A stretch of DNA of 64,000 nucleotides, from contig JANWWI010000003.1 in NCBI GenBank assembly GCA_025056355.1, positions 87,457-151,456 of the forward strand, given 5' to 3'. The stretch is from Casimicrobiaceae bacterium. GTDB lineage: Bacteria > Pseudomonadota > Gammaproteobacteria > Burkholderiales > Casimicrobiaceae. The translations under genes and the position numbers were made by a program. The first letter of the stretch is position 1. Each line of letters starts with the position of its first letter. This document shows positions 59,075-64,000 of the stretch, piece after piece. The notes below the pieces were generated by a model, which was not told the origin of the DNA, searched no databases, and saw only the letters and a list, made by a program, of their open reading frames with translations.

Positions 59075-59491
59075 GTGTCAGGCCACGATCGCAATCCACA
59101 CCGAGACCGTGTGTATCGGGGCTTGAGTGTCCTCGGTACCCCGCTTGTGCCGTGCAGCTGCGATCCGCTCACTGGCTTTACGCGCAGCGGCTATTGCGAA
59201 ACAGGCCCCGAAGATGTGGGCTCGCACACCGTCTGCGCGATCATGACGGCCGAGTTTTTGGCCTTTACCCGCTCGCGCGGCAATGATCTCAGTACCCCTC
59301 AGCCGCTCTACATGTTCCCCGGACTTCGTCCCGGCGATCGCTGGTGCCTTTGCGCTCTGCGCTGGCTCGAGGCGTATCGGGCGGGCGTTGCCCCGCCGGT
59401 CGTGCTCGAGGCCACCCATGAAAAAGCGCTCGACGTGATCCCGCTTGCCGCCCTACGGTCGCACGCGGCACAGCTCTCGTCGGCGCGCTAA
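59075..59491 (+). CDS. DUF2237 family protein
   Basis: GTPLVPCSCDPLTGFTRSGYCETGPEDVGSHTVCAIMTAEFLAFTRSRGNDLSTPQPLYMFPGLRPGDRWCLCALRWLEA. Confidence 0.93.
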   Translation: MSGHDRNPHRDRVYRGLSVLGTPLVPCSCDPLTGFTRSGYCETGPEDVGSHTVCAIMTAEFLAFTRSRGNDLSTPQPLYMFPGLRPGDRWCLCALRWLEAYRAGVAPPVVLEATHEKALDVIPLAALRSHAAQLSSAR

Positions 59492-59510
59492 ACACGGCGC
59501 GGGGGTGCAT

Positions 59511-59732
59511 CCCCTCACCCGGCGCTTCGCGCCACCCTCTCCCGGGGGGAGAGGGAACGAGACAACCCATGGAGCGCACCGTTCTTCGCGCGGAACAACA
59601 CATCCTCTCGCCCGGCGCTTTGCGCCACCCTCTCCCGGCAGGAGAGGGAAAGCGGTGTCAAGCAGTCGCTCTCTGGGGTACGAGGGCAGTCAGAGCTCGC
59701 CCTCTCCCTCTGGAAGAGGGTCGGGGTGAGGG
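59511..59732. repeat. Cluster of three palindromic (REP-like) intergenic repeats
   Basis: CCCTCACCCGGCGCTTCGCGCCACCCTCTCCCGGGGGGAGAGGG (59511), TCGCCCGGCGCTTTGCGCCACCCTCTCCCGGCAGGAGAGGG (about 59607), inverted CCCTCTCCCTCTGGAAGAGGGTCGGGGTGAGGG (about 59700). Confidence 0.8.
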
Positions 59733-60996: not shown

Positions 60997-63306
60997 ATGA
61001 AACAGCCTGAAGCCCTCCCCGAAGAACCGCTTGCCATCCCCGCGCCGCAATCCGCGGGCACAACGGCCGTCGACCAAGCGGCGGCGTTGCTCGCGCTCAG
61101 GCTCGTGCTCACGCTTGGGCCGCGCTTCAACCTGCGCCGAGACATCAACGATGTGATGACCCTCTGCGCGCGCCATCTTCGCTGGCCGCACGGCGTGGTG
61201 ACGCGCCTTCAGCGCTTCCTCTCGCAGCGCTGTGCCGATCTGCCGGCGTGGGCGGGCGTGGGCAGCCTCTCGCCGGAAGCCTTCGTGGCCAAGTACTGCA
61301 TCTGGAACGGCACCTACGACGACACCACGGTCTTCTACTTCCTCGACGAATACTGCAAGCAAAACCCAAAGGAGGTGCTCGCCCTTCTCCAGACCACCGC
61401 GGATGCGCTCGAGCGCGCGGTGCGCAAGGAGCCGCCACGGATTGCCGAAAACGTGGCCCTGCTTGGCCGGGTACTTGGCCTGAACGCGGCCGAGCAGGCC
61501 CTGCTGCGGTGTGCAGCCCTTGCGAAATGCTCACGCGATCTGCGCCCGATTCTGGTCGACTGTAAGGCCGCGAGCGCCGCCGAGGCGCACGCGATGCTGG
61601 CGGAGGTCACCGGCGTCAATGCGCAGGAGATCGGCCTTGCGCTCAAACCCGGCGGACGGCTCGAATCGCTCGCCTTGATCGATGCGCCGATCGCCGAACA
61701 CAACATCACCGACCTGGGCGATCTCATGCGGCTCTCGGATCGGCTTTTGCCGCTCTTGCAGGAGCACTATGCGAATGAGGCCGCACTGATGGCCGCCTTC
61801 ACCAAGCCGGCCAAACCGACCACGCTCACGCTCGCCGACTACCCGCATGTCGAGGATGATGCGCGCTACCTCGCGGCGCTCCTCGCTGCGGCCGCCGAGC
61901 GTCGCGAGGCGGGCGTCAATGTGCTCATCTACGGTGCGCCGGGCACCGGAAAGACCGAATTCGCCAAGGTCATCGCGGCCATGGCGGGCGCCGAGCTCTA
62001 CGAGGTCGAATGCTTCGATCGCGAGGGCGCAAGCCTCACCGGCAAGGAACGCTATCGCTCGTTGCAAATCTCGCAATCGTTCTTGAAGGGCCGACCCAAC
62101 ACGGTGCTTCTGTTCGACGAGGTGGAGGATGTCTTCCCCTCGAGCCCTTCCGAGATGCTCAACATGTTTCTTTCGGATGAGCACCATCGCGGCAGCGTCA
62201 ATGGCAAGGCCTGGGTCAACCAGACCCTTGAGACAAACCCCGTGCCCACGATCTGGATCTCCAACTCGATCAACCAGATCGATCCGGCCTACCGGCGGCG
62301 CTTTCAGTTCCACCTCGAGCTCAAAAACCCGCCGCAGAAGGTGCGCGCCAACATCATCCGCAAGTACCTCGCCGGGCTGCCGGTCAGCGAAGCCTTCATC
62401 GAAAAGCTCGCCGCGCGGCGTACGCTCACGCCCGCGCAAATTCACGCCGCAGCGCGCTTTGCGCAACTGACCGCGGGCCGGCTCGGGGACGATGTCGAAG
62501 CGCTCATTGAGCGGCAGCTTGAGCGCTCCGAGGCGGCGCTCGGCTTGAAGGAAGACAAACCCGCCGGCGACTTCCGTCCGAGCGTCACCCACTACGACCT
62601 CACGCTTCTCAACATCGAAACCCGCCATCCGGTCGAAAAAATCATCGCCTCGCTCAAGGCGAAGGGCGCGGGCAGCCTCCTCTTCCACGGCCTGCCCGGC
62701 ACCGGAAAGACGGCGCTTGCCGAACACATCGCCCGTTCGGTCGAACGCCCGCTCATGATCAGGAAGGCGAGCGACCTCATCTCCAAGTGGGTCGGCGAGA
62801 CCGAGCAGAACATGGCCGCGATGTTCAAGGAAGCCACGACCGAAAAGGCGGTGCTCCTGCTCGATGAAGCCGACAGCTTCTTCCAGCCGCGCGGCATGGC
62901 GCAGCGGAGTTACGAGGTCACCGAAGTGAACGAAATGCTCCAACAGATGGAGCGCTTCGGCGGCATCTTCATCTGCACGACGAACCTGATCGACCGGATC
63001 GACGAAGCGGCGCTTCGGCGCTTCACCTTCAAGATTCGCTTCCACCCGCTCAAGCCCGAGCAGCGCGAGCGGATGTTTGTGACCGAGGCGCTCGCGGGCG
63101 ACGCCTCACGCCTGACCGAGAAGCACCGCCACGCGCTTGCCAAGCTCGACCTCCTCACCCCCGGCGACTTCGCTGCGGTCAAACGGCAGATCGCCCTCTT
63201 TGACGAGCCGCTTTCGCCTGAGGACTTCCTCGCGCAACTGATCGAAGAGCACAAGGTCAAGCCGGACGTCAAGTGGGCGCGGTCGATTGGGTTTTCGGCA
63301 ACGTAG
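60997..63306 (+). CDS. AAA family ATPase with two AAA modules
   Basis: 769 aa; Walker A GAPGTGKT and GLPGTGKT; Walker B LLFDEVED and LLLDEADS; SRH SINQIDPAYRRRFQ and TTNLIDRIDEAALRRF; about 290-residue N-terminal region of unknown type. Confidence 0.92.
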   Translation: MKQPEALPEEPLAIPAPQSAGTTAVDQAAALLALRLVLTLGPRFNLRRDINDVMTLCARHLRWPHGVVTRLQRFLSQRCADLPAWAGVGSLSPEAFVAKYCIWNGTYDDTTVFYFLDEYCKQNPKEVLALLQTTADALERAVRKEPPRIAENVALLGRVLGLNAAEQALLRCAALAKCSRDLRPILVDCKAASAAEAHAMLAEVTGVNAQEIGLALKPGGRLESLALIDAPIAEHNITDLGDLMRLSDRLLPLLQEHYANEAALMAAFTKPAKPTTLTLADYPHVEDDARYLAALLAAAAERREAGVNVLIYGAPGTGKTEFAKVIAAMAGAELYEVECFDREGASLTGKERYRSLQISQSFLKGRPNTVLLFDEVEDVFPSSPSEMLNMFLSDEHHRGSVNGKAWVNQTLETNPVPTIWISNSINQIDPAYRRRFQFHLELKNPPQKVRANIIRKYLAGLPVSEAFIEKLAARRTLTPAQIHAAARFAQLTAGRLGDDVEALIERQLERSEAALGLKEDKPAGDFRPSVTHYDLTLLNIETRHPVEKIIASLKAKGAGSLLFHGLPGTGKTALAEHIARSVERPLMIRKASDLISKWVGETEQNMAAMFKEATTEKAVLLLDEADSFFQPRGMAQRSYEVTEVNEMLQQMERFGGIFICTTNLIDRIDEAALRRFTFKIRFHPLKPEQRERMFVTEALAGDASRLTEKHRHALAKLDLLTPGDFAAVKRQIALFDEPLSPEDFLAQLIEEHKVKPDVKWARSIGFSAT

Positions 63307-63339
63307 CAACGGTCCGGCTCACGCTGCGACCTCGGCCGC

Positions 63340-64000
63340 TCACTTCCCTGCGACTGTACTGGGGTCGGTTTCGTTGCCCGCTTTCGGCCACTTGACCCAG
63401 AGCTCATAGCCCGGCGGGCACCACGGCCGCCAGACCGGGAAGCCCGTCTGCGGATTCACGCATGGCACCCGCAGATAGCGCCACGCTGGGCCGCCGTAGG
63501 ACACGACGGGGTGCGCCACCTCCGCCCTAAGCGGCTGCGGGCGTTGCGGGTCAAGCACGGCCCAGGCGCCGTCGGCGAAGGCGTAGCAGCGGCGAACCTC
63601 GCTCACGCCGGCAGCAGGATTGCCGGGGTCGGCCAGCTTCCAAATCCGAACGGTGCCGTCGTCCGATCCACTGACGATCCAGCCCCCGTCCGGACTCACG
63701 GCGAGGCTCCTGACCCCAAGCCGATGCCCCGCAAGCCGCGCCACCTCCCGCACCCCAGCCGACGGATCGCTCGCATCGGACAAGGCCCAAAGGCGCACCG
63801 GGCCTTCAATCGAACCACTCGCCAGCCAGCCCCCGCCCGGACTCACGGCTAGGCTCATGACCCCACCCTTCTGCCCCTCAAGCCGCGCCACCTCCCGCAC
63901 CCCAGCCGACGGATCGCTCGCATCGGACAAGGCCCAAAGGCGCACCGTGCCGTCAAACGAACCGCTCGCCAGCCAGCCCCCGCCCGGACTCACGACAAGG
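63340..64000 (-). CDS. WD40-repeat protein, C-terminal part (runs off right edge)
   Basis: Repeats SPGGGWLASGSFDGTVRLWALSDASDPSAGVREVARLEG..., then GPAWRYLRVPCVNPQTGFPVWRPWCPPGYELWVKW C-terminal extension. Confidence 0.9.
   Translation of the reverse strand, partial: LVVSPGGGWLASGSFDGTVRLWALSDASDPSAGVREVARLEGQKGGVMSLAVSPGGGWLASGSIEGPVRLWALSDASDPSAGVREVARLAGHRLGVRSLAVSPDGGWIVSGSDDGTVRIWKLADPGNPAAGVSEVRRCYAFADGAWAVLDPQRPQPLRAEVAHPVVSYGGPAWRYLRVPCVNPQTGFPVWRPWCPPGYELWVKWPKAGNETDPSTVAGK
63733..64000 (-). repeat. Near-identical 147-bp tandem repeats inside the WD40 gene
   Basis: 68 bp at 63733-63800 identical to 63880-63947; flanking bases also highly similar; period 147 bp (49 codons). Confidence 0.93.

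What the first reader, a model, noticed from the sequence alone, without database searches (positions are those of the whole stretch)
60997..64000. Tandem-AAA ATPase convergent with a WD40 protein carrying homogenised repeats
A 769-aa two-module AAA ATPase with a large unassigned N-terminal region lies 33 bp from the end of a WD40 gene on the opposite strand. WD40 proteins with nearly identical repeats are a hallmark of some NTPase-linked, fast-diversifying bacterial conflict (NLR-like) and signalling systems. Here the NTPase is a separate gene on the other strand and the WD40 N-terminus lies outside the window, so any functional link is hypothesis only. This is the most accessory-looking part of the window.
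Basis: partly seen in the sequence, partly recalled or inferred. Interest (0 to 1): 0.6.

Follow-up and report, generated by a model that had tools for sequence, protein, structure and literature searches.

The report
Bacterial NLR-like gene beside unrelated AAA-ATPase
The WD40 gene at the window's edge is the tail of a large immune-receptor-like (NLR-type) protein inserted in this bacterium beside a long-established, unrelated ATPase gene; both belong to known kinds of protein, and nothing found links them functionally.

Summary
In detail: a 769-aa tandem-AAA ATPase (60997-63306, +) converges, 33 bp apart, with a WD40 gene (63340-63999, -) cut off by the window's end, which is also the contig's end.

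The two genes are unrelated neighbours. The ATPase is in all 16 congeners (71-88% identity) and many other Burkholderiales; 83 compared neighbourhoods show no shared partner, and no ortholog locus has the WD40 gene. It is a Cdc48/Rix7-like double-AAA protein with a well-predicted helical N-domain that matches no solved fold.

The missing WD40 N-terminus was found. Another contig of this genome (C145) starts inside a gene encoding NNH6 (NACHT N-terminal helical domain) and the start of a TIR domain. It is followed by the DNA-glycosylase and tricarboxylate-receptor genes that directly follow the ATPase in the closest relative. So the ATPase-glycosylase junction was interrupted by an insertion carrying one large gene, seen at both ends. 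Related proteins read NNH6-effector-NACHT-pentapeptide-WD40; a congener shares this WD40 tail. The NACHT module itself lies in the assembly gap and is inferred. New member of a known kind (bacterial NLR-like proteins).

The parts
60997..63306 (+). Tandem-AAA ATPase, 769 aa (Cdc48/Rix7-like double ring plus own N-domain); conserved neighbour, not part of the NLR-like gene
   Evidence: Pfam AAA x2; orthologs in 16/16 congeners and many Burkholderiales; 50-sequence alignment with invariant Walker A/B and arginine positions; Foldseek to Cdc48/Rix7/NVL
61060..61830 (+). N-terminal all-helical domain (residues 22-278), no Pfam family, no solved fold match
   Evidence: AF2 pLDDT 93.3, pTM 0.89; Pfam none; Foldseek PDB best E 0.99, viral best E 1.1
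61918..62304 (+). First AAA module (residues 308-436)
   Evidence: Walker A GAPGTGKT, Walker B LLFDE in the sequence
62677..63042 (+). Second AAA module (residues 561-682)
   Evidence: Walker A GLPGTGKT, Walker B LLLDE in the sequence
63340..63999 (-). C-terminal fragment of the NLR-like gene: three WD40 blades and tail; N-terminal part is on contig C145 (L171:1-711, -), the middle is in the assembly gap
63679..63994 (-). Array of near-identical WD40 blade units, period 147 bp
   Evidence: TRF 2.1 copies, 92% matches; 91% DNA identity between units
63340..63630 (-). C-terminal tail after the propeller, homologous to the tail of the NACHT-pentapeptide-WD40 protein of a congener (L130)
   Evidence: local score 98 against 28.2 +/- 5.3 in 5000 shuffles; L130 itself matches L167 (E 1e-24) and L183 (E 3e-21) over NACHT-end and pentapeptide region
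63307..63339 (.). Left boundary of the insertion: homology with the empty site of the closest relative ends at about 63296-63306, at the AAA stop codon
   Evidence: blastn and joined-flank alignment with L131

Best explanation
Two unrelated things meet here. (1) A resident, single-gene tandem-AAA ATPase, most likely a hexameric double-ring protein remodeller of the Cdc48/Rix7 kind that binds its substrate or adaptor through its own helical N-domain (inferred from motifs and fold; substrate unknown). (2) Behind its stop codon, in this genome but not in its closest relative, an inserted gene on the minus strand for an NLR-like protein: NNH6 helical domain, TIR effector, NACHT module (inferred), pentapeptide repeats (inferred), WD40 propeller and a conserved tail. 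By the scheme established for bacterial NACHT proteins, the WD40/tail part senses an invader-derived or disturbed host protein, the NACHT module then oligomerises, and the clustered TIR domains consume NAD+ or make a NAD-derived signal, stopping phage growth by stopping the cell. Shown here: both ends of the gene, its insertion site, its relatives' architecture. Inferred: NACHT/pentapeptide in the gap, activation, NADase activity, anti-phage role.
For: Contig C145 of the same genome begins inside a minus-strand gene with NNH6 (30.8 bits, cut-off 27) and a TIR-like start (32% to the TIR of L167, E 2e-7) and continues with DUF4143-ATPase, UDG-type DNA glycosylase and a tripartite-tricarboxylate receptor. 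In the closest relative (G009/L131) AAA is followed directly by that glycosylase, that receptor and gyrA; the flanks of the two contigs align to that empty site, the glycosylase losing its native stop at the insert. Orientation fits: gene starts on C145, ends on C104. Own genome has only one NNH6 place and only one WD40 place. All four other NNH6 proteins examined run NNH6-effector(TIR or PNP_UDP)-NACHT-pentapeptide-WD40 (for L182 and L183 the NACHT row is not among the 25 rows printed, but the P-loop GEYGMGKT and the Walker-B motif VFDGLDE or IFDGLDE are in the sequences). The WD40 tail is homologous to that of L130, a NACHT-end-pentapeptide-WD40 protein of a congener. AAA unlinked: no WD40 near any of 80 ortholog loci with up to 6 kb flanks nor near the congener loci with about 1.5 kb flanks, no neighbour shared across lineages. 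Tripartite bNACHT scheme: PMC12169576. Highly repetitive WD40 propellers on STAND/TIR proteins with fast turnover: PMC9218822.
Against: No single sequence spans the gene: more than 1,000 residues, with the NACHT module, are missing from the assembly, and no NACHT match over the cut-off exists in the binned genome. TIR_2 scores 18.6, below its cut-off of 28, because the contig ends inside the domain. The WD40 fragment has higher GC (0.70) than the TIR fragment (0.64). Tail similarity to the full-length NNH6 proteins L181 and L183 is not significant. No phage data.
Confidence: 0.85

Rival explanations
1. AAA ATPase and WD40/NLR-like protein form one conflict system, the ATPase acting on or being guarded by the NLR-like protein.
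For: Immediate adjacency (33 bp, convergent). The AAA family has distant paralogs (35-43%) that sit near Sir2, WYL, DUF2779 and BREX-2 genes.
Against: The ATPase is fixed in the genus and present in many Burkholderiales without any WD40 neighbour; the two NLR-like genes of congeners (L130, L167) lie on other contigs than the AAA gene; convergent orientation excludes an operon.
Confidence: 0.04
2. The WD40 fragment and the NNH6-TIR fragment are two different genes on both sides of the gap, the WD40 gene having another N-terminus (nSTAND1, kinase or none).
For: The gap is unsequenced; other Burkholderiales WD40 proteins have STAND-type architecture without NNH6 (L141) or TIR-like ORFs next to WD40 ORFs (L140).
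Against: Same strand, facing contig ends, a single NNH6 and a single WD40 place in the genome, all examined NNH6 proteins end in WD40, tail shared with a NACHT-pentapeptide-WD40 protein.
Confidence: 0.1
3. The insertion is an assembly or binning artefact: C145 or the end of C104 belongs to another organism.
For: Fragmented assembly of 170 contigs, and both contigs end in the inserted gene.
Against: Each contig continues from conserved syntenic flank into the insert without a break; contamination is 0.22%; GC of the TIR fragment and DUF4143 gene is ordinary for the genome.
Confidence: 0.04

Closest known systems
Bacterial NLR-related NACHT proteins (bNACHT; PMC12169576)
   Same: N-terminal effector, central NACHT (in relatives), C-terminal sensor on one polypeptide; accessory, sporadic distribution (NNH6 in 4 of 399 genomes of the order)
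   Different: Effector is TIR behind NNH6, sensor is WD40; NACHT not seen in this genome because of the assembly gap; no defence test
NNH6-PNP_UDP-NACHT-pentapeptide-WD40 proteins of other Burkholderiales (L181, L182, L183) and the NNH6-TIR version in a congener (L167)
   Same: Domain order, NNH6 start, WD40 end
   Different: PNP_UDP phosphorylase-type effector instead of TIR in three of them; different blade inserts; tail similarity not significant
WRAP-type highly repetitive WD40 propellers on STAND/TIR proteins of cyanobacteria (2ymu; PMC9218822)
   Same: WD40 blades newly amplified, linked to STAND ATPase and TIR; 2ymu is the best sequence match in the PDB
   Different: In Nostoc the TIR-STAND protein and the WRAP protein are two genes; here one gene is inferred
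Cdc48/p97, Rix7/NVL tandem AAA ATPases
   Same: Two AAA modules in series, same fold, intact motifs
   Different: Different N-domain; score far below the CDC48 model cut-off (86.9 against 802.65)
IetA anti-phage AAA ATPase (IetAS)
   Same: Best NCBIfam and PADLOC match, mainly of the second AAA module (128.5 and 143.6 bits)
   Different: Two modules plus N-domain, far below the IetA cut-off of 510 bits; no conserved partner gene

Membership tests
Bacterial NLR-related NACHT protein (bNACHT) | Central NACHT NTPase module | tested here: inconclusive
   Module expected in the assembly gap; no NACHT over cut-off in the binned genome; present over cut-off in the relatives L167 and L181
Bacterial NLR-related NACHT protein (bNACHT) | NACHT-associated N-terminal helical domain (NNH6) | tested here: met
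   PF22737 30.8 bits, cut-off 27, on C145; again
Bacterial NLR-related NACHT protein (bNACHT) | N-terminal effector domain (TIR) | tested here: inconclusive
   TIR_2 18.6 bits, cut-off 28, domain cut by contig end; 32% identity to TIR of L167, E 2e-7
Bacterial NLR-related NACHT protein (bNACHT) | C-terminal repeat sensor | tested here: met
   WD40 93.5 bits; tail homologous to that of a NACHT-type protein
Bacterial NLR-related NACHT protein (bNACHT) | Protects against phage by triggered effector activity | not testable with these tools
   needs phage challenge
IetA (IetAS anti-phage system) | Score over the curated IetA cut-off (510 bits) | tested here: not met
   128.5 bits
IetA (IetAS anti-phage system) | Conserved partner gene next to the ATPase gene | tested here: not met
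   No neighbour shared across lineages in 83 neighbourhoods; that IetA has a partner, IetS, is from memory
Cdc48/Rix7-type tandem AAA ATPase (as mechanism) | Two AAA modules with intact Walker A, Walker B and arginine fingers | tested here: met
   Invariant G313, G316-T320, D374-E375, R434-R435, G565, G568, G570-T572, D623-E624, R674-R675 in 50 sequences
Cdc48 family (as membership) | Over the cut-off of the CDC48 model; Cdc48 N-domain | tested here: not met
   86.9 against 802.65 bits; N-domain has no fold match

The most novel reading that the evidence does not exclude
The tandem-AAA family is a so far undescribed protein-remodelling machine of some Burkholderiales with a new helical substrate-binding domain, whose distant mobile paralogs were recruited into defence islands (beside Sir2, WYL, DUF2779, BREX-2); the resident copy would be the domesticated or ancestral form.
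Probability: 0.25. Interest if true: 0.5.

Novelty: new member of a known kind. Interest (0 to 1): 0.33.

Why it matters
It shows how an assembly break at near-identical WD40 repeats hides NLR-like genes: the two ends land on different contigs and look like an orphan WD40 gene and an orphan TIR gene. Synteny with an empty site in a relative joins them again. It adds a TIR-bearing NNH6-NACHT-WD40 protein to the bacterial NLR-like set, and leaves a conserved, uncharacterised tandem-AAA protein with a confidently predicted helical N-domain of no known fold.

Tried and rejected
Extending the contig: impossible, it ends at the window end. NACHT and nSTAND1 searches of the own genome for the missing middle: nothing convincing. 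Repeat DNA elsewhere in the genome: none. WD40 relatives in viral contigs: none. Tail domain in a wide sample: no convincing further member. Tail HMM from L130, L181, L183 against ours: not above shuffles; only the pair with L130 is significant. Second-AAA match to IetA: considered and rejected as membership. Fold of the AAA N-domain: no match in PDB or viral library. Excess of amino-acid-changing over silent codons between blades (9 against 2): too few to claim diversifying selection.

Full report
1. The observation. The ORF at 60997-63306 encodes 769 residues with two AAA modules, at residues 308-436 and 561-682. On the other strand, 63340-63999 encodes the last 219 residues of a WD40 protein. 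The stops are 33 bp apart. The window's right edge is the end of contig C104 (151456 bp). Two outer blade units are 91% identical in DNA (period 147 bp), the last blade 59%. There is no other WD40 place and no other copy of the repeat in the genome.

2. The ATPase. It has orthologs in all 16 congeners examined at 71-88% identity (some broken by contig ends) and in Cupriavidus, Ralstonia, Variovorax, Ramlibacter and others at 55-62%. Other genera of its own family lack it or hold only distant paralogs, and its N-domain occurs at full length in 8 of 399 genomes of a phylum sample, all of them in the same order. It is fixed in the genus but patchy in the order. In a 50-sequence alignment the motifs of both modules are invariant, so both rings are under constraint. 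The second module has the motif S-K-[WY]-V-G-E at the place of the Cdc48 pore loop (reading of the alignment, prior knowledge of Cdc48). Foldseek puts the whole protein with Cdc48, Rix7 and NVL. Residues 22-278 form a helical domain predicted with pLDDT 93 and pTM 0.89, without Pfam family or fold match (best E 0.99 in PDB, 1.1 in viral structures). In 83 neighbourhoods no flanking gene recurs across lineages and none of the related loci has the WD40 gene. IetA, the best defence-library match, is mainly a match of the second AAA module and is far below its cut-off.

3. The other half of the WD40 gene. A search of the own genome with the N-terminal part of a congener's TIR-NACHT-WD40 protein (L167, from G010) gave one place: the very start of contig C145, 3531 bp. 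C145 reads: a minus-strand gene running off the left end, with NNH6 (30.8 bits, cut-off 27) and the first 69 of 122 positions of TIR_2 (18.6 bits); a plus-strand AAA_14-DUF4143 gene; a minus-strand UDG-type glycosylase; a plus-strand tricarboxylate receptor. In the closest relative (G009; L131) the order is AAA, glycosylase, receptor, gyrA without anything between AAA and glycosylase. Blastn and an alignment of the joined flanks show that C104 up to the AAA stop and C145 from about 2110 onward match that empty site; the glycosylase frame of this genome runs on past its native end into the insert. Thus the insert has the WD40 end on one side and the NNH6-TIR start, plus the DUF4143 gene, on the other. 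Strand and direction agree with one gene.

4. Relatives tell the middle. NNH6 was found in 4 of 399 genomes of the order, this one included. The other three proteins are NNH6-PNP_UDP-NACHT-pentapeptide-WD40, two of them complete at about 1,740 residues (for L182 and L183 the NACHT row is outside the 25 rows printed, but the P-loop GEYGMGKT and the Walker-B motif VFDGLDE or IFDGLDE stand in the sequences). The congener protein L167 is NNH6-TIR-NACHT-pentapeptide-WD40 and, like ours, is cut by a contig end inside the WD40 repeats. A second congener protein (L130) has the end of the NACHT region, pentapeptide-like repeats, WD40 repeats and a tail homologous to the tail of our gene (score 98 against 28.2 +/- 5.3 in shuffles), and its NACHT-pentapeptide part matches L167 and L183 (E 1e-24 and 3e-21). 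So the WD40 fragment reaches the NNH6-NACHT family by its tail, independently of synteny. WD40 proteins are rare in this family: 7 of 64 genomes.

5. How it most likely works. Bacterial NACHT proteins have a C-terminal sensor, a NACHT module that oligomerises and an N-terminal effector (PMC12169576). TIR domains cleave NAD+ (PMC7159879). [quoted passage not shown] Put together: the propeller and tail sense, NACHT clusters, TIR acts on NAD+, the cell stops and the phage with it. Steps shown: both ends of the gene, insertion, relatives' architecture. Steps inferred: the middle of this gene, activation, activity, role.

6. Verdict. The insertion point next to it explains the adjacency. New member of a known kind.

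Noticed in passing
L171 (G000:C145) 920-2110 +: AAA_14-DUF4143 ATPase inserted together with the NLR-like gene, divergent from its start; 587 bits to PADLOC candidate PDC-S01. Not seen beside the NLR-like genes of the relatives read here.
   Followed up: partly
L135 6676-10309, L150 7713-10726, L152, L153, L134: Distant paralogs (35-43%) of the tandem-AAA protein lie beside Sir2-type, WYL, DUF2779, SNF2/PLD or BREX-2 genes: a mobile, possibly defensive branch of the family.
   Followed up: partly
G034 contigs C347, C144 and C491: One genome of the same family holds at least six tandem-AAA paralogs, two per contig, 6-17 kb apart.
   Followed up: no
L181, L183 (and L182, cut at the contig end): NNH6-NACHT-pentapeptide-WD40 proteins with a nucleoside-phosphorylase-type (PNP_UDP_1) domain in the effector position in other Burkholderiales.
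   Followed up: partly
L140 6024-11848: TIR-like ORF overlapped by a long ORF with many WD40 repeats and a further ATPase-like C-terminus, possibly a frameshifted single gene.
   Followed up: no
window 59445-59729: Intergenic stretch with a repeated motif (reads 'RRFAPPSPG.RG' twice in one frame), like a dispersed repeat.
   Followed up: no
L171 1987-2616 -: UDG-type DNA glycosylase frame extended by about 28 residues into inserted DNA after losing its native stop.
   Followed up: yes
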